Positions 37,071 to 44,900 of a DNA stretch of 64,000 nt are shown in pieces (the stretch's first letter is position 1; each line of letters begins with the position of its first letter). The notes under the pieces are model-generated. The model had not been told where the DNA came from and ran no database searches. It worked only from the letters and a program-made list of their open reading frames with translations. The DNA is from a virus: the IMG/VR virus record IMGVR_UViG_3300023296_000639, positions 62,001 to 126,000 of that record. One strand, written 5' to 3'. The position numbers and the translations under genes are program-made.

Positions 37071-37903
37071 TTATCTAAAAAGACTAAGGATTGCTTGTTC
37101 AGATTGAACAGCAAGACTCAACGAGTTGTTAGCTAGTGCTTGGCGTGTCTGAAGAGCTAGCAAGTTAGCTGATTCTTCGTTTAGGTCTGCGTTGACCAAG
37201 TTACCAGCGCCTTCTTTGAGGCTGTTAATCATATTAGCTGTGAACTCTTCACGTGACTGAATCAACGCTGCATTTGTACCAAGCGTCTTAGCTGATGTAC
37301 GAACAGTTGACAATGCTGCATCAATCTTTGCGATATCAACATCAATGGCGGTCGTACCAGTTGCTATGGTGGCGTTTTCCCAATCACCAGCGTCGGTTAC
37401 TGCAAGACCAACTTGATCAGAAGCAATACCCGCAACCGTCAATGTTGTTGTGGTTTCGTTTAGCTTCACGGTCAAGCTATCTGGCGTAGCTTTCAGTAGT
37501 CCAACACCATTGAATGTAGCGTCTGCACTGGTGTTGTTGATCTGGTCAAGAATACCATCATATTGTGCTGAGAATGTAGTACGTTCTGCCACGCTTGAAG
37601 ATGCTTTAGCAGATTCAGCAACAGCTTTTGCTTGCTTTAGCAGACCTTCAATGGACTCTAGAGCATCAGTAGCTGTTTGTACAGTAACGATGTTGTTTGC
37701 TAGGTTTTCTTTTACCGTCAATAGATCGGATGCCGACTGCTTAAACCACGTGCAATAAAGAATGATGATGGATTATCAATAACATTGTTGACTTTCTTTC
37801 CTGACGAAAGGCGTCCTTGTGTCATTTCTAAGAGGTTAGTTGTATTTTGTAGTGAGTTTAGGTTACTGCGAATACTCGCAGATAGAGTTACTTCGTTTGA
37901 CAT
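37071..37903 (-). pseudogene. Flagellin, alphaproteobacterial type, with a one-base frameshift
   Basis: The N-terminal reading frame (37903 down to about 37735) gives LSASIRSNLNSLQNTTNLLE, QGRLSSGKKVN and NPSSFFIARGLSSR: the conserved D0/D1 helix of flagellin. The second frame (from about 37735 to 37071) gives SDLLTVKENLANNIVTVQTA and ends with LVNADLNEESANLLALQTRQ and SLSLAVQSEQAILSLFR, the C-terminal D1/D0 helix. The frames join if one G is restored at CGG(G)CATCC near 37733. Joined length is about 277 residues, a short flagellin. A late box (37991-37984) and AAGGAG precede it. Either it is broken or the assembly lost a base. Roles could be mimicry, decoration or recombination cargo (speculation). 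Confidence 0.8.
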
Positions 37904-38646: not shown

Positions 38647-40290
38647 TTGAGTTACGTTGACGCAATCTACGATAAACGAAATAACGTTGTTAAGGTAGTT
38701 GAAAGACTGAATGGTAAACGAATAGTAACCGAACATCCGTGTAAATGGACGTTTTATTATGACGATCCAGCTGGAAAGTATAATACTATTTTTCGTAATC
38801 CTGTTTCCAAATTCGAATCTGATAGTAAAAAGGAATTTCATCGTGAGTTGAAAAGTCGTAGTCAGACACGTGTATGGGAAAGTGATATAAATATTGTTAA
38901 TAAGACACTTGAACGTCACTATATTGGGCAGATGTCGCCCAAGCTAAACGTGTGCTTCTTCGATATTGAGGTTGACTTTTCGCCTACGCTTGGTTTTGCG
39001 CCACCCGATGACCCGTTCAATAAAGTAACGGCTATCTCATTATATTGTTCGTGGATGGATGAAATGGTTACGTTAGCTATTCCACCAAATACACTGACGC
39101 TTGAAGAAGCCGAGGCAATGATGGATTTCCCCAACACATACCTATTCAGTAACGAAGGGGATATGATTGAAACGTTCCTTGACTTAATCCAAGAAGCCGA
39201 TGTGCTTACGGGTTGGAACAGTGAAGGCTACGATATTCCGTATATGGTTAACCGAACGGCACGGGTTCTTAGTAAGAATGACACACGCCGTTTCTGTTTA
39301 CTTGACCAACTCCCAAAAGAACGTGAATACGAAAAATATGGCAAGATGCAAAAGACGTATGATTTACGTGGACGTATTCACTTGGATAGCCTATCATTGT
39401 ATCAGCAATATACCTATCACGAAATGCATTCGTATTCGTTGGATACCATTTCTGAATATGAACTAGGTGCCCGTAAAATCCAATACGCAGGATCGCTAGA
39501 TAAGTTATACAATGACGACTTTTATAAGTTCATTGAATACAACCGTCAGGATACTTTGCTATTAAAGCAACTTGATGATAAGCTACAGTTTATTGATCTA
39601 TGCAATGAAATCGCACACGATAATACAGTGCTTATTGCGGCAGCTATGGGTGCCGTTGGTGTTACTGACCAAGCCCTTATCAACTATGCGCATTCACTTG
39701 ATATGGTTGTGCCTAATAAGGTTCATTATGGCGACGACGAAGATCACCGTGCGGCTGGTGCTTATGTGGCGCATCCGAAGAAAGGCACACATAAATGGGT
39801 AGGTGCTATCGATATTAACTCACTATATCCATCGGCTATTCGTGCATTGAATATGAGTCCCGAGACATTTGTAGCACAGTTATTGCCTACACATACACGT
39901 CCGCTTATTGAAAAACGAATGGCTGAAGGCAAGTCGTTTGCAGGAGCATGGGAAGGGTTATTTGGTACACTTGAATATTCCTTTATGGATGATAAAGATG
40001 ATACCACACCACTCAAAGTACAATGGGCAGATGGCAAGCAAACCACACATACTGGCAAGGAAATTAACGATATTATTTTCCATGGTGGTGAAAAATGGGT
40101 AGTAAGCGGTAACGGCACAGTATTTGAGTATAATAAGCAAGGCATCATTCCCGGCATACTTGAAAAATGGTACGCAGAACGCCAAGAACTACAAGCCAAG
40201 AAGAAGGCAGCGGCGGTTATTGATGATTCTACCATAGAAGTACCTAATGATATTATGTCTAAACTTGGAAAGGATTTGATAGACGACTAA
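38647..40290 (+). CDS. 43A: DNA polymerase family B, N-terminal part (exonuclease and motif A)
   Basis: 547 residues from TTG 38647, supported by AGGAG (38636-38640). 3'-5' exonuclease: Exo I FFDIEVDF (Asp106, Glu108), Exo II GWNSEGYDIPY, Exo III YNRQDTLLL. Polymerase motif A is AIDINSLYPSAI (about 387-398). The chain then stops after KLGKDLIDD, before motif B. Motif B and motif C are encoded by the separate downstream genes. Split gp43 genes exist in some T4-like phages; here 338 nt with a non-polymerase remnant separate the parts. The pieces must assemble into one enzyme. Confidence 0.9.
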   Translation: MSYVDAIYDKRNNVVKVVERLNGKRIVTEHPCKWTFYYDDPAGKYNTIFRNPVSKFESDSKKEFHRELKSRSQTRVWESDINIVNKTLERHYIGQMSPKLNVCFFDIEVDFSPTLGFAPPDDPFNKVTAISLYCSWMDEMVTLAIPPNTLTLEEAEAMMDFPNTYLFSNEGDMIETFLDLIQEADVLTGWNSEGYDIPYMVNRTARVLSKNDTRRFCLLDQLPKEREYEKYGKMQKTYDLRGRIHLDSLSLYQQYTYHEMHSYSLDTISEYELGARKIQYAGSLDKLYNDDFYKFIEYNRQDTLLLKQLDDKLQFIDLCNEIAHDNTVLIAAAMGAVGVTDQALINYAHSLDMVVPNKVHYGDDEDHRAAGAYVAHPKKGTHKWVGAIDINSLYPSAIRALNMSPETFVAQLLPTHTRPLIEKRMAEGKSFAGAWEGLFGTLEYSFMDDKDDTTPLKVQWADGKQTTHTGKEINDIIFHGGEKWVVSGNGTVFEYNKQGIIPGILEKWYAERQELQAKKKAAAVIDDSTIEVPNDIMSKLGKDLIDD

Positions 40291-40312
40291 TCTCGTCTTT
40301 TGTCCTAAATAA

Positions 40313-40669
40313 ACCAAACAATATGAGTTTCTAAAAGAGAATGAAGTTGAAAGTCACCATTACCGTTATGACGGGCATTCTGTTAAAAATATAAAGTGCT
40401 ATAAGTATAAAGATTATATTGCTATTGGCGGCAAAAATATGATATCATTATTACAAGAGAATCAAATAGATATTCCAAGAAAATACGTGGATGATATAGA
40501 AATGTCTTTTCCTAAACCTCATCACAATATGCGTGAAGATAGGAAAAACTTTTTCGGTGAATATCACGGGAAATGCCTAAAAGATTTAGGTGTTGCCAAA
40601 TATAAACTCACAGAGATAGGAGAATTGAATGGATTTAGTCTCTACAATCCAAGACCTCATCAGCAATAA
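40313..40669 (+). pseudogene. Open-frame remnant between polymerase halves
   Basis: The frame is open from after TAA 40310-40312 to TAA 40667-40669, 118 codons, but the first ATG is at codon 43 (40439). The amino-acid content (QYEFLKENEVESHHYRY, KYKDYIAIGGKNMISLL) looks coding. It overlaps the second polymerase gene by 41 nt and provides its ribosome-binding site. It is most likely the 3' end of a gene brought in with the break, possibly a mobile nuclease, but I do not recognise the family. Confidence 0.45.
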
Positions 40670-41582
40670 CGAAACTGAAAAGTTAGAACAAGTGATGAGA
40701 GAAAACGATTTGGTTGTAAGAAACGGCAAGATTGAAAACAAAGATAGGGGTGCAGTAGCATTCCGGGATAAGCGGCAGTTGGTCAAAAAGATCAACTTGA
40801 ATTCGTAAATATTGCGACTTTATATAGTAATATATAATGAAAAACTCCTCTAACTGCGGGGAACTCTCACCGAGACAATCCGCAGCCAAGCCCGTAAGGG
40901 AAGGTTCAACGACTATGCGAAAGCAGTAGTATCAAGTGATACGAAACGGGGAGCAACCTTCAAGGTTGGTGATATAGTCTAATCTGTATGGCGACATACA
41001 GCAGTTCATGAGAGAACGCACATAAACTAACGACTTATGTGGAATATAAATGTGTATGGTGCTGTATTGAATAAGCATTGTCGTTTCTACGTCTTTGATA
41101 TCGGACAGTCAACCACACTAACTGGTCGGTGTATTGCAAAGCATATGTCAGCATACGTGAATCAATCACTGGCGGGTGAATACGATCATACTGGAAAAAG
41201 TATTGTGTATGGCGACACAGACTCAGAATTTGCCGAAACCATACACAAGACCAATTGGGGTGAGCTTACCGTAGAAGAATTGTTCAACCGAGGGCAGCGT
41301 TATTGGAATGATGCCAAGGATGATACAAAGGAATATAGTGCTAACGATGATTTGAAGGTTCTTTCGTATAACCCGGAAGAAGGCAAAGCGTATTACGGGC
41401 ACATCAATTATATCTACAGGCATAAGGTATCTAAAGAACAATGGGAAATTGAGGATCAATATGGTAATACCATTCGTGTAACTGGCGATCACTCAGTTAT
41501 GGTTGAGAGAGATGGCGTATTGATGGAAATAAAACCACGAGATATATTGAAGGATGATTTACTTATTACTACTACTGAATAA
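40629..41582 (+). CDS. 43B: DNA polymerase family B, middle part with motif B, interrupted by intron and ending in N-intein
   Basis: ATG 40629 has AGGAG (40618-40622). Exon 1 (40629-40806) ends KRQLVKKINLNS; exon 2 (41053-41582) continues (L)YGAVLNKHCRFY. Joining exon U (40806) to TG (41053) makes a Leu codon and restores motif B Kx3NSLYG exactly. Exon 2 reaches motif C YGDTD, then runs into a split-intein N-half (from Ser at 41223) and stops at 41582. Mature extein contribution is 116 codons (40629-40806 plus 41053-41222). So the gene needs RNA splicing and then protein trans-splicing. Confidence 0.85.
40807..41052 (+). ncRNA. Group I self-splicing intron in polymerase motif B
   Basis: 246 nt, no open frame inside. 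The 5' exon ends UCGU and pairs with GCGA in the intron (P1 with terminal U-G at the splice site). Conserved core pieces: GGGGAACTC (P element), CCGCAGCCAAGCCC (Q), GTTCAACGACTA (R, near 40904-40915) and GATATAGTC (S, 40971-40979). CGACTAT pairs with ATAGTC as P7. P9 is CTGTATG-GCGA-CATACAG (40984-41001). The intron ends in G at 41052. It resembles the T4 td/nrd subgroup IA introns. The removed intron leaves motif B in frame. Confidence 0.9.
41223..41582 (+). other. Split intein, N-terminal half, inserted at YGDTD|S
   Basis: 119 residues from Ser1 (nt 41223). It follows polymerase motif C YGDTD. Block A-like start SEFAETIHKTN ... ELTVEELF, block B TGDHSVMV (T-x2-H, about 41484-41507), then a C-terminal KPRDILKDDLLITTTE and stop. 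No endonuclease domain. Length fits the N-halves of natural split inteins. Confidence 0.85.
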
Positions 41583-41701
41583 GGTCTTCATCATATGCTA
41601 CCAATAATGGATACGAGGTATTTGTTATCTGGGAAAATGATTGGTATCACGACCAATATACTATTATACAACGAGTAAAGGAATGGCGGAATGGAAGTTA
41701 A
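41582..41701 (+). pseudogene. Homing-endonuclease C-terminal scar between the intein halves
   Basis: 39 codons in another frame: YATNNGYEVFVIWENDWYHD then QYTIIQRVKEWRNGS, stop TAA 41699-41701. The Gly-Tyr-x-Val-x-VIWE-x-D/E-W pattern is the C-terminal end of the Vsr-like (EDxHD) homing endonucleases described between halves of 'fractured' split-intein genes. The rest of the nuclease is missing. It overlaps the C-intein start by 11 nt. Confidence 0.7.
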
Positions 41702-41822
41702 AAAAGCTAAAGTAAAATCTGTCAAACAGTTAGACAACTTTGATGATGAATATGTCTATGACATAGGCATGAAGAATGAAGAGCATCCATGGTTCTTCGG
41801 CAACAACATTCTCGTTCATAAC
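41691..41822 (+). other. Split intein, C-terminal half
   Basis: 44 residues. Block F EYVYDIGMKNEEHPWFF and block G GNNILVHN, ending His-Asn, with Ser as the +1 extein residue (SVYFSMWP). Own ATG and GGAATGGCGGA-type ribosome-binding site. Length matches the C-halves of natural split inteins such as gp41 and NrdJ types. Confidence 0.88.
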
Positions 41823-42680
41823 AGCGTGTATTTTTCAATGTGGCCAGTTATCGAAGATGCGGTTAATAATGGTGAAATGGAATGGTCGAAAAAAATCTGC
41901 ACCGAAGTATACGATCAGGTGTCGGAAGCCGTAAATGAATCGTTTCCTCCGTTTATGAAGAAAGCATTTAACTGTCCGCAACATATGGGCGAAATCATTG
42001 AAGGTGGCCGAGAACTTATCGCAACAAAAGGATTGTTCATAAAGAAGAAGCGGTATGGTCTTATGATTTATGACGACGAAGGAACACGCCGTGATGTTGA
42101 TGGCAAAGAGGGCAAAGTCAAAGCTATGGGCTTGGACTTGAAGCGTTCGGATACGCCGGGGTATATGCAAGAATTTCTTATGGAAATCCTTATCGATGTG
42201 TTAACAGACAAAGAAGAAGATGAAATCATTGGTAAGATTTTTGACTTCAAAAAAGAGTTTGTAGAACGTCCGCCTTGGGAAAAAGGTACGCCAAAACGTG
42301 TGAACAACCTTACCAAGTACACCAAGATGTATGAAAATAAGGGCATGAAAGGCGTAATGATTCCCGGTCACGTATCGGCAGCTATTCATTGGAATAAGTT
42401 AAAAAAGTTCTATTCTGATAACTATTCAATGGATATTCAAGACGGTCAAAAGACTATTGTGTGTAAGTTAAAGAATAATCCGCTTGGATATACGAGCATC
42501 GGGTATCCGATTGATGAACCACATATTCCAGACTGGTTTAAGGATTTGCCGTTTGATAACGAGTTAATGCTTGCAACTATTGTGGATCAAAAAATTAAAA
42601 ACTTGCTTGGTGTTATGAAGTGGGATTTGGATACTAAAACAGACGTTACTTCGACTTTTAATACACTATTTGATGTATAG
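41691..42680 (+). CDS. 43C: DNA polymerase family B, C-terminal part fused to C-intein
   Basis: 329 residues: C-intein (1-44) then 285 residues of polymerase. Directly after HN comes SVYFSMWPVIED, the continuation of motif C (YGDTDS-VYF). Later IKKKRYGLMIYDDEG is the KKRY motif of family B polymerases, and the thumb follows to FNTLFDV. Trans-splicing with the N-half (41223-41582) would give the intact palm-thumb. Without splicing the catalytic aspartates of motif C are separated from the rest, so activity depends on the intein. Confidence 0.88.
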   Translation: MEVKKAKVKSVKQLDNFDDEYVYDIGMKNEEHPWFFGNNILVHNSVYFSMWPVIEDAVNNGEMEWSKKICTEVYDQVSEAVNESFPPFMKKAFNCPQHMGEIIEGGRELIATKGLFIKKKRYGLMIYDDEGTRRDVDGKEGKVKAMGLDLKRSDTPGYMQEFLMEILIDVLTDKEEDEIIGKIFDFKKEFVERPPWEKGTPKRVNNLTKYTKMYENKGMKGVMIPGHVSAAIHWNKLKKFYSDNYSMDIQDGQKTIVCKLKNNPLGYTSIGYPIDEPHIPDWFKDLPFDNELMLATIVDQKIKNLLGVMKWDLDTKTDVTSTFNTLFDV

Positions 42681-42691
42681 TAATATACACA

Positions 42692-42699
42692 CATAAATA
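42692..42699 (+). promoter_or_regulatory. T4-type late promoter box
   Basis: CATAAATA, 5 nt before ATG 42705. Predicts a leaderless late transcript; no Shine-Dalgarno present. Confidence 0.6.
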
Positions 42700-42704
42700 G
42701 GTAT

Positions 42705-43622
42705 ATGGATGCTAACAAATATTGGGATTTAGTTAAGAAATACGATGAATTTAAACGGATTGACTATGCACCGTTATCGGAAACGTTGAGTAGTTATTCC
42801 AGTATCGCATCCACTATTCGAAATGGTGAAGATTTAGCCAAAGACTTACTTGAAATGCAACATATCATTGGTCGCAGAACAGTAAAAAAATTAGATAAGA
42901 AATTTCAAGAAGAAATACGAAAATATGAGATAGAGTTTATTCAGCAAAGTTATCGTTATTATGATAGCGAAATGAAGTTTGACGACTATGCACATATCAA
43001 CCAATATTACACAGATTTGCATTTACCCGTTGCTGCAAAAGAAATAATAGAAGGAAAAATAAATCTTGCTATCAAATGGCAGTATCCCGGTATGGAATTA
43101 AGTCCCGGCATAAATCATTTTACGGATAAATTGGTGGGGCTTGATCCTTTGTATATCGTTGATAAGCATTCTGAGTCTCTTATTAATACGAAAAACAAGT
43201 TCAACGATGCGTATCAGCGACGATTGCGCACATATCACGCCCACGGCGACGTGGACTTTAGATCATTGCCAGTTGGGCAAATGGGTCTTATTTTTAGTTT
43301 TGGATTTTTCGAAAGATTGCCGCTTGATGTTATTAAAATATACTTAACCGAATTTAAAAAACTTCTTCGACCTGATGGACGAGTTATTATGAGCTATAAT
43401 AATTGTTTGCTGAAATCGAGTCTTGATAACACTATCTTTAAAAAATATAGATTATTCAATACACGTGATTACATTGAGCCTTTGGTTTATGGGCTAGGAT
43501 TTGATAATATTAGTACAACTGATATTGAACCAAATATATCCATATTGGAATTCACGCAGCCCGGAGAATTTTACACACAACGTGCTGGTCAAACTCTTGG
43601 AAATATCAAAAAAACATATTGA
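42705..43622 (+). CDS. Methyltransferase-like protein, probably leaderless late
   Basis: 305 residues. N-terminal about 150 residues are helical. The C-terminal half reads GLIFSFGFFERLPLDVIKIY ... LLRPDGRVIMSYNNC ... YIEPLVYGLGFDNI, the usual motif-IV-to-VI course of class I SAM methyltransferases (LxPGGxxxxS). A clean motif I (GxGxG) is not evident, although PLYIVDKHSE may be the acidic loop. Substrate unknown. The ATG follows a late box directly. Confidence 0.5.
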   Translation: MDANKYWDLVKKYDEFKRIDYAPLSETLSSYSSIASTIRNGEDLAKDLLEMQHIIGRRTVKKLDKKFQEEIRKYEIEFIQQSYRYYDSEMKFDDYAHINQYYTDLHLPVAAKEIIEGKINLAIKWQYPGMELSPGINHFTDKLVGLDPLYIVDKHSESLINTKNKFNDAYQRRLRTYHAHGDVDFRSLPVGQMGLIFSFGFFERLPLDVIKIYLTEFKKLLRPDGRVIMSYNNCLLKSSLDNTIFKKYRLFNTRDYIEPLVYGLGFDNISTTDIEPNISILEFTQPGEFYTQRAGQTLGNIKKTY

Positions 43623-43648
43623 TTTTACTATCCGCAGTTTGATATAAT
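43619..43648 (+). promoter_or_regulatory. Sigma70-like promoter
   Basis: TTGATT (43619-43624), 18-bp spacer, TATAAT (43643-43648); upstream of the sliding clamp gene (43685), with GGAG before the start. Confidence 0.65.
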
Positions 43649-43684
43649 ATATTATAAACAAATGACAAATTACATGGAGTTTAA

Positions 43685-44413
43685 ATGAAAGACGCATTAC
43701 TTGATATCGTCCAACATACAACTGGATTGGGTTTTATTGACCTAGTAAAAGTTGTTGGCGACGTAGACCAAACAGCAGTAAATGGAATGGCAGACGACCG
43801 TTCTGTAGTAGTTGAAGCAAAGTTCAATTCCCCAGTGACCGAGTTCAGTGGCACATTTGGGATGCCGAACCTAAAAAAGCTTCAAACACTTCTAAACATC
43901 CCGGTATATGCCGAAGATGCAAAGCTTGAGTTATCCACGCAGGATCGCAATGGCGAAAATGTTCCAGTTGGTATTCACTTCGAAAACTCTACTGGTGACT
44001 TCAAGAACGACTATCGTTTTATGACTATGGACGTTATTAACGAAAGGCTGAAGAGCGTAAAGTTCCGAGGCGCAAACTGGAACGTAGAGTTCAAACCCAG
44101 CGCAGCCGCTATCCAGCGGTTTAAATACCAAATCCAAGCAAACAGTGACGAAGAAAGCTTTATCGCTAAAACGGAAGACGGCGATCTTGTTTTCTATTTT
44201 GGCGACCACTCAACACACGCCGGTAACTTTGTATTCCAGCCAAGCATTGAAGGCAAATTAGCACGTGCTTGGAAATGGCCAGTGGCACAAACATTGGCTA
44301 TCCTAAATCTAAACGGCGACATCACCATGAAATTCAGCGATGATGGTGCCGCACAAATCACTGTTGATAGCGGCCTTGCTATTTATGAATACATCTTACC
44401 AGCTAAACAATAG
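43685..44413 (+). CDS. 45: Sliding clamp (T4 gp45-like)
   Basis: 242 residues (T4 gp45 is 228). Two repeated halves of alternating strands, with SSxxL-type edge strands and a C-terminal GLAIYEYILPAKQ that fits the clamp end. It resembles T4-like clamps in FGMPNLKKLQTLLN and FVFQPSIEGKLARAWKWP. It tethers the polymerase and, in T4, also activates late promoters with gp33 and gp55; the late boxes here imply the same use. Sigma70 promoter upstream. Confidence 0.82.
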   Translation: MKDALLDIVQHTTGLGFIDLVKVVGDVDQTAVNGMADDRSVVVEAKFNSPVTEFSGTFGMPNLKKLQTLLNIPVYAEDAKLELSTQDRNGENVPVGIHFENSTGDFKNDYRFMTMDVINERLKSVKFRGANWNVEFKPSAAAIQRFKYQIQANSDEESFIAKTEDGDLVFYFGDHSTHAGNFVFQPSIEGKLARAWKWPVAQTLAILNLNGDITMKFSDDGAAQITVDSGLAIYEYILPAKQ

Positions 44414-44422
44414 GATATAAAA

Positions 44423-44638
44423 ATGAAAAACGAAGTAACTAAAATCTATAACGACCTCGACACATTCCGTGATTTCTGCCGAGAAGAAGGATTCGTCTTT
44501 CGAGAAGGTGATCTCTATAATCAAAAAACTTATTGGGGTCTTATGGATCGTCGTAATAATCGTGGATTGATTATTGACAACCAATGGGAAAAGGGTGCGA
44601 AGATTTTCCGTCGCCCCATTCATCACAGGAACAAATAA
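44423..44638 (+). CDS. Small basic protein, unknown
   Basis: 71 residues, 9 nt after the clamp stop. Arg/Tyr/Phe-rich (FRDFCREEGFVFREGDLYN, MDRRNNRGLIID) with no motif recognised. Followed directly by the next gene. Confidence 0.5.
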   Translation: MKNEVTKIYNDLDTFRDFCREEGFVFREGDLYNQKTYWGLMDRRNNRGLIIDNQWEKGAKIFRRPIHHRNK

Positions 44639-44639
44639 A

Positions 44640-44900
44640 ATGGACCTAACTGCCCTCCCTTATACATACCATGCTCGGGTTGATAGTATCACCTATAGAC
44701 CATCGAGAACCGGACAACCGGGCGGCGCATTAAACGCCAACTGGTCTACCGTTGATGCCATCGCCATCGTGTGTGCTAAGGCCGGAAATCTCGGCCTGAA
44801 ATATGGTGAAGATTTCTGGTGGGAAGGGACAGGAAGTGATATACTCCACTTTCGTTTCAAAGATGAAAAATACATTATGATGTTAGGATTATCAATATGA
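44640..44900 (+). CDS. Small protein, unknown
   Basis: 86 residues from ATG 44640, one base after the preceding stop. Alpha/beta with GQPGGALNANWSTVDAIAIV. ATGA overlap with the next gene. Unknown. Confidence 0.5.
   Translation: MDLTALPYTYHARVDSITYRPSRTGQPGGALNANWSTVDAIAIVCAKAGNLGLKYGEDFWWEGTGSDILHFRFKDEKYIMMLGLSI

What the first reader, a model, noticed from the sequence alone, without database searches (positions are those of the whole stretch)
40291..42680. Natural split intein in the DNA polymerase catalytic motif YGDTD|S
The middle polymerase gene ends in an intein N-half that starts at the Ser after YGDTD (41223), contains block B TGDHSVMV, and stops at 41582. A separate gene starts at 41691 with a 44-residue C-half (blocks F and G, ending HN) directly followed by Ser and the rest of motif C (SVYFSM). 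The two halves are encoded in order on the same strand, so the polymerase can only be complete after protein trans-splicing. Split inteins between halves of phage replication genes are known as 'fractured genes' for gp41, NrdJ, IMPDH and TerL; I do not know of this one in a B-family polymerase active site and cannot check it here.
Basis: partly seen in the sequence, partly recalled or inferred. Interest (0 to 1): 0.92.

Follow-up and report, generated by a model that had tools for sequence, protein, structure and literature searches.

The report
Split intein in a phage polymerase
A phage DNA polymerase gene is cut into pieces by a split intein at its catalytic site, a group I intron and a further gene break; the split intein is real, but it belongs to a widespread family that has already been studied in the laboratory.

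Summary
In detail: motif C is encoded as YGDTD + 119-residue N-intein (41223-41579, stop) and, 108 bases on, a 44-residue C-intein ending HN + SVYFSM (41691). A profile of 72 relatives finds these two halves and nothing else in six frames. Two other IMG/VR contigs carry the same split.

The novelty claim does not hold. Split inteins in PolB motif C are annotated in Aeromonas phages Aes508/Aes516 and Tenacibaculum PTm1, published for Pseudomonas phage MIJ3, and characterised, with a crystal structure, as Aes123 PolB1. IMG/VR holds dozens.

Three additions. (1) Trans-splicing does not complete the polymerase: it is also broken into 43A and 43B, and a group I intron interrupts motif B. (2) The gap holds the tail of a decayed Vsr-like homing endonuclease; 13 of 20 short-gap split entries (two are this phage) hold one. 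(3) In three other contigs two inteins stand in motif C separated by only Thr-Asp; split and contiguous forms change at least 12 times on a tree of 73. Splicing itself is inferred, not tested.

The parts
38647..40290 (+). 43A: exonuclease domain and motif A (DINSLYPS) part of a T4 gp43-type PolB, 547 aa, TTG start
   Evidence: PF03104 1.1e-21, PF00136 9.4e-11; PHROG 262 2.5e-114; 66% identical to the uninterrupted polymerase of L017
40291..40628 (+). Insert splitting 43A from 43B; holds an open frame running to 40669 (113 aa read), no clear family
   Evidence: absent from the uninterrupted relatives aligned; weak PHROG 4210 hit E 0.0032; a close-relative scan of viral contigs found only two contigs of the same phage
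40629..40806 (+). 43B1 exon 1, start of the middle polymerase gene behind AGGAG
40807..41052 (+). Group I intron in motif B; splice sites modelled so that NSL/YGA is restored
   Evidence: RF00028 105.8 bits at 40789-41001; splice model; similar DNA in 487 phage records
41053..41222 (+). 43B1 exon 2, up to YGDTD of motif C (N-extein)
41223..41582 (+). N-intein, 119 aa, Ser1, no cysteine, block B TGDH, His67 aligned with His68 (block X) of the Aes508 intein; stop included
41585..41701 (+). Remnant of the C-terminal end of a Vsr-like homing endonuclease, in a frame other than the intein's; overlaps the C-half start
   Evidence: profile of 31 relatives' endonucleases matched at model positions 291-324 of 326, E 6.6e-10; 0 of 2000 shuffles reach the score against the PTm1 and Aes508 enzymes, 6 of 2000 against L025's, 410 of 2000 against PA5oct's Hef-like one
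41678..41682 (+). AAGGA, likely ribosome-binding site of the C-half gene, 8 nt before ATG, inside the endonuclease remnant
41691..41822 (+). C-intein, 44 aa, blocks F and G, ends VHN, no cysteine
41823..42680 (+). 43B2 C-extein: Ser+1, rest of motif C (SVYFSM) to the end of the polymerase, 285 aa
   Evidence: PHROG 1918 4.4e-50; 75% identical to L017

Best explanation
This is a naturally split, cysteine-free class 1 intein of the Aes123 PolB1 type in the catalytic motif C (YGDTD^S) of a T4 gp43-type DNA polymerase. Shown by sequence: the two halves, the intact catalytic residues, the group I intron, the 43A/43B break and the decayed Vsr-like endonuclease tail between the halves. Inferred: the intron is removed from the RNA; 43B1 and 43B2 are translated separately, the C-half from a ribosome-binding site left in the endonuclease tail; the halves associate and splice in trans through Ser1, Asn163 and Ser+1, restoring YGDTDS; the 401-residue 43B then pairs non-covalently with 43A. 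The intein was once mobile by an endonuclease gene between its halves and, having lost it, now persists as a split intein that cannot home on its own.
For: Complementary profile hits; intein residues Ser1, TxxH, block X His, penultimate His, Asn, Ser+1 present and no Cys; best solved relative is 9HTH, 3.2e-13, named in PMC13014065 as the Aes123 PolB1 structure (passages). Same layout (43A / group I intron + N-intein / C-intein) annotated in Aes516 and Aes508. Relative L017 has a continuous polymerase that skips all three interruptions. Exteins and intein halves keep protein-level constraint (pN 0.11-0.28 against pS 0.74-0.91), the endonuclease remnant does not (pN 0.38, pS 0.36, only 38 codons). 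No PolA match and no second PolB in the 141,891-base record. Endonuclease remnant.
Against: No expression or splicing data. The native Aes123 split intein spliced to only about 30% (PMC11923092 abstract), so efficiency cannot be assumed. N- and C-halves share a reading frame, which leaves readthrough of two stops formally open. The record is a linear fragment, so another polymerase could lie elsewhere. Intron splice sites are modelled, not mapped. The assemblies that confirm the split may not be fully independent.
Confidence: 0.9

Rival explanations
1. The stops are read through or are sequence errors, and the intein is really contiguous, splicing in cis.
For: N- and C-halves are in one frame, with two in-frame stops; contiguous relatives exist: 16 of 86 intein entries with both halves.
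Against: Two other contigs carry the same stretch; the gap's coding signal is in another frame and matches an endonuclease tail; an AAGGA precedes the C-half ATG; 70 of 86 entries are split.
Confidence: 0.04
2. The intein is dead and the polymerase gene is broken; the phage replicates with another polymerase.
For: Several interruptions in one gene; the intein's endonuclease is decayed.
Against: All splicing residues kept; strong protein-level constraint on exteins and intein halves, though much of that divergence may predate the split; no other DNA polymerase of family A or B found in the record.
Confidence: 0.04
3. The halves assemble and work without splicing, as non-covalent subunits.
For: 43A/43B of Aeromonas phage 25 co-purify and are active (PMC2988022, passages).
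Against: Here 119 foreign residues would sit directly behind the catalytic Asp of motif C; relatives splice in vitro.
Confidence: 0.02

Closest known systems
gp43 of Aeromonas phages Aes508 (NC_019543) and Aes516 (JN377905); Aes123 PolB1 intein (PDB 9HTH)
   Same: 43A/43B break, group I intron near motif B, split intein in motif C before Ser, Ser1/Ser+1, cysteine-free, halves of 120 and 39 aa; Aes516 also keeps only the endonuclease tail, fused in frame to its N-half
   Different: 33% identity to the Aes508 intein; the intron sits a few codons further 5' here (NSL/YGA against after NSLYGA); Aes508 keeps the endonuclease gene between the halves and has another homing endonuclease between 43A and 43B
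Split PolB intein of Pseudomonas phages MIJ3 / PA5oct
   Same: YGDTD^S, split, cysteine-free, 48% identical intein (PA5oct); reported for MIJ3
   Different: intact endonuclease gene between the halves (called Hef-like or HNH); no 43A/43B break in PA5oct
Tenacibaculum phage PTm1 split polymerase
   Same: polymerase in separate pieces, split intein in motif C
   Different: gene annotated as VSR endonuclease between the halves; YADTD; 35% identical
Salicola phage SCTP-2 PolB mini-intein
   Same: 51% identical intein
   Different: contiguous, and two residues upstream (YGD^TDS)
IMG/VR contig 3300020198_000887 (L023), second intein
   Same: nearest relative found: N-half 60%, C-half 77%, split, endonuclease tail in the gap
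   Different: stands behind another intein, Thr-Asp between them
Nanoarchaeum equitans PolB split intein (recalled, no call)
   Same: natural split intein in a B-family polymerase
   Different: archaeal; not compared here

Membership tests
Aes123 PolB1-type cysteine-less split inteins | Insertion in PolB motif C between Asp and Ser | tested here: met
   YGDTD / SVYFSM
Aes123 PolB1-type cysteine-less split inteins | Ser1, Ser+1, no Cys, block X His | tested here: met
   alignment; His67 aligns with His68 of Aes508; role of His68 from PMC13014065 passages
Aes123 PolB1-type cysteine-less split inteins | Split at the endonuclease position, about 120 + 39 aa | tested here: met
   119 + 44 aa
Aes123 PolB1-type cysteine-less split inteins | Protein trans-splicing activity | not testable with these tools
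   needs co-expression
Fractured genes (split intein around a free-standing endonuclease gene; definition recalled, Dassa et al. 2009 not held) | Intein halves on separate genes, same strand, in order | tested here: met
Fractured genes (split intein around a free-standing endonuclease gene; definition recalled, Dassa et al. 2009 not held) | Intact endonuclease gene between the halves | tested here: not met
   only the last ~38 codons remain
T4 gp43-type DNA polymerase split as 43A/43B | PolB exonuclease and polymerase motifs, break before motif B | tested here: met
   the best solved matches, about 900 aa long and titled DNA polymerase, include 1clq and 3kd1 (that these are RB69 gp43 is recalled); break between QELQAKKKAA and DKRQLVKKINLNS; that this is the fingers region is recalled
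Group I introns | Rfam Intron_gpI covariance match above gathering score | tested here: met
   105.8 bits, cut-off 50

The most novel reading that the evidence does not exclude
Motif C of phage PolB is a double intein hot spot. Two neighbouring sites, YGD^TD and YGDTD^S, are each invaded by related inteins that travel as split halves around a Vsr-like endonuclease, lose it from the 5' side while keeping its tail, and repeatedly re-fuse into contiguous mini-inteins. In three contigs both sites are occupied at once, so the extein between two inteins is the dipeptide Thr-Asp, which carries a catalytic aspartate. The window is a late stage: still split, endonuclease almost gone.
Probability: 0.7. 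Interest if true: 0.6.

Novelty: new member of a known kind. Interest (0 to 1): 0.4.

Why it matters
The window adds a cysteine-free split intein to a family already used for protein ligation, and a polymerase interrupted in three places like that of Aeromonas phages. The wider series is more useful: related inteins at one active site show an intact endonuclease, graded remnants and contiguous forms, so how split inteins arise, decay and re-fuse can be tested on one gene. The Thr-Asp double inteins ask whether two inteins can splice around a two-residue extein.

Tried and rejected
The insert 40291-40628 was searched in Pfam, NCBIfam, PHROGs, phages and viral contigs without a convincing family. 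A search with the 43B1 head gave E of 2 or more in the 10 of 68 records listed. The idea that endonuclease tails are kept for the C-half's ribosome-binding site has moderate support only: 21 of 56 split loci (7 of the 56 had no start codon found; this phage is in twice; near-duplicates partly left in) against 108 of 1,605 ATGs of the window's + strand; several remnant loci lack such a site. Of 20 short-gap split entries (this phage twice, L162 and L169 near-identical), six show no endonuclease remnant and one an N-terminal piece. The grouping of 49 of 50 long-gap ORFs with Vsr-like enzymes is by single linkage and takes in a 584-aa ORF; Pfam gave weak restriction-endonuclease-like or no hits to three of the enzymes. 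Genome contigs gave five weak, distant hits not followed up. Rows left out: 97 loci were scored and repeat loci of contigs already seen were not; 4 of the 97 held a C-half only and gave no entry; 10 entries had the N-half only and were counted neither as split nor as contiguous. The first dN/dS script failed and was mended. No structure prediction was run: the sequence match to 9HTH made it unnecessary.

Not in print, as far as searched: no paper on Thr-Asp double inteins was seen (39 papers hold one of the terms, 15 listed; 1 paper; 5 papers). Dassa et al. 2009 is not held.

Full report
What is there. The window is bases 62001-126000 of a 141,891-base virus record. A T4 gp43-type B-family polymerase lies at 38647-42680 in three pieces. 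43A (547 aa) holds the exonuclease and motif A. 43B1 starts at ATG 40629 behind AGGAG, is interrupted by a group I intron (Rfam RF00028, 105.8 bits; modelled 40807-41052) and runs to YGDTD. The frame goes on as a 119-residue N-intein and stops at 41580. 43B2 starts at 41691 with a 44-residue C-intein ending VHN, then SVYFSM and the rest of the polymerase.

Is it more than chance. A profile of 72 related inteins, none from this phage, hits two of 1,378 six-frame segments of the window, covering profile positions 3-114 and 115-157; all others have E above 3. Best solved match of the joined halves is 9HTH, E 3.2e-13. Contig L010 (230 kb) differs at one base in 10,987 and L009 at none over 38701-44740. 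The window's record and L010's contig hold the locus at the same contig coordinates, so those two may not be independent. N- and C-halves are in one frame with two stops between them; I keep readthrough as a weak rival.

Empty sites. L017, a phage with 66-75% identical polymerase, has one uninterrupted frame of 887 aa that skips the 43A/43B insert, the intron and the intein. Of the best 80 polymerase loci kept from IMG/VR (more matched than were kept), 2 are this phage, 1 has a contiguous intein at YGD^TDS, and 77 are uninterrupted at motif C; one of these 77 (L071) is cut before 43A. The interruptions were thus gained in this lineage or lost around it.

The gap between the halves. The frame 41585-41698 reads SSSYATNNGYEVFVIWENDWYHDQYTIIQRVKEWRNGS. 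It aligns with the last residues of the Vsr-like endonucleases of PTm1 and Aes508 (no shuffle in 2,000 reaches either score; against L025's enzyme 6 of 2,000; against the Hef-like enzyme of PA5oct 410 of 2,000, that is, no match). A profile of 31 such enzymes matches it at positions 291-324 of 326. Among 20 split entries with gaps under 400 bases (this phage counted twice), 13 hold such a tail, always reaching model position 324-325 and starting anywhere from 241 to 303; one holds an N-terminal piece; six hold nothing recognisable; the best of 92 reverse-strand control segments has E 0.35. All 50 long gaps (over 700 bases) were read for their longest frame, and 49 of these link by blastp, single linkage, to Vsr-like enzymes. 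So deletions seem to eat the endonuclease from its 5' side and spare its end, which in this phage and in Aes508 overlaps the start of the C-half. Aes516 shows the same in another way: its N-half ORF ends in the tail of the enzyme. Whether the ribosome-binding site is the reason is open.

Selection. Against L017, exteins show pN 0.14-0.21 with pS 0.74-0.89; against L023, the intein halves show pN 0.28 and 0.11 with pS 0.88 and 0.91. The endonuclease remnant shows pN 0.38 and pS 0.36 over 38 codons, as expected without protein-level constraint, though the sample is small. The record has no PolA match and no second PolB.

How it likely works. RNA splicing removes the intron; the two halves are translated separately, meet, and splice in trans through Ser1, Asn163 and Ser+1, restoring YGDTDS. 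That yields 43B (401 aa), which must still pair with 43A. For Aeromonas phage 25, 43A and 43B co-purify and are active (PMC2988022, passages). All of this is inference from relatives. The Aes123 PolB1 intein splices in vitro at an ultra-fast rate but, in native form, to about 30% because its N-half aggregates (PMC11923092, abstract and passages).

What is known. [quoted passage not shown] CP21, LCGC14 and GOM-OPS-1 PolB split inteins were tested too, their exact site not being given in the passages I saw (PMC12707363). Aes508 and Aes516 even share the 43A/43B break and a group I intron near motif B; that intron lies a few codons downstream of the window's, which suggests separate insertions. 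The finding is therefore a new member of a known kind.

What is less ordinary, outside the window. Of 97 loci scored, 86 intein entries have both halves: 70 split, 16 contiguous (near-duplicates included). They use two sites two residues apart, YGD^TDS and YGDTD^S. On a tree of 73 distinct inteins (60 split, 13 contiguous) the site changes at least 3 times and split/contiguous at least 12 times; pairs such as L118 (contiguous) and L123 (split, endonuclease ORF present), or L178 and L184, lie very close together on that tree, so conversion is recent. I read it as repeated re-fusion after endonuclease loss; the tree is a quick one, with open forks, and does not fix direction. In three contigs both sites are filled: L110 as one frame with two contiguous inteins; L023 with a contiguous first and a split second intein (with endonuclease tail); L120 with a split first intein around a 295-aa ORF and a contiguous second one. 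In each the extein between them is Thr-Asp. Each rests on one contig. I saw no report of this, which does not show there is none. Related work on neighbouring inteins concerns haloarchaeal MCM (PMC10643990, abstract and passages).

A second fractured gene. The same record, outside the window at C1:28956-31418, encodes a UDP-glucose/GDP-mannose dehydrogenase cut, by the look of it, by a split intein at its catalytic cysteine motif (GGA / C...HN / CHPRD; motif recalled), with a 271-aa ORF between the halves. Pfam supports the dehydrogenase and the N-half; the C-half ORF gave no Pfam family and rests on its reading and on a weak genome-search match spanning stops.

Verdict. Observation confirmed; a real split intein with 0.9 confidence; not new in kind. 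Interest 0.4, carried mostly by the three-fold interruption, the endonuclease remnant and the series of relatives.

Noticed in passing
L023:3524-4610 (also L109), L110:4515-5492, L120:4992-6878: Two inteins in one polymerase motif C with only the two extein residues Thr-Asp between them (YGD / intein 1 / TD / intein 2 / S), in three contigs from three metagenomes, in three combinations of split and contiguous forms.
   Followed up: partly
G000:C1:28956-31418 (L233:703-3165), outside the window: A likely second fractured gene in the same record: nucleotide-sugar dehydrogenase with an N-intein half at its catalytic Cys motif, a 271-aa ORF weakly similar to phage endonuclease I (below Pfam's cut-off), then an ORF starting with what reads as a C-intein half, which Pfam did not recognise.
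   Followed up: partly
contig of L010 (G001):C1:221657-222184: A further Pfam intein match (32.8 bits, below cut-off), in a 984-aa open frame, in the longer contig of the same phage.
   Followed up: no
L118 against L123; L178 against L184: Neighbours on the intein tree of which one is contiguous and the other split around an endonuclease ORF: recent conversion between the two states.
   Followed up: partly
window 37071-37903, - strand: A phage-borne flagellin read in two overlapping frames: Flagellin_N (61 aa, below Pfam's cut-off) and Flagellin_C (216 aa) parts.
   Followed up: no
window 40281-40300: By eye, no call: a six-base inverted repeat followed by a short T run at the stop of 43A, terminator-like.
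   Followed up: no
window 40291-40669: Insert between 43A and 43B with a 113-aa open frame of no clear family; 43A and 43B1 both carry extra ends there compared with uninterrupted relatives.
   Followed up: partly
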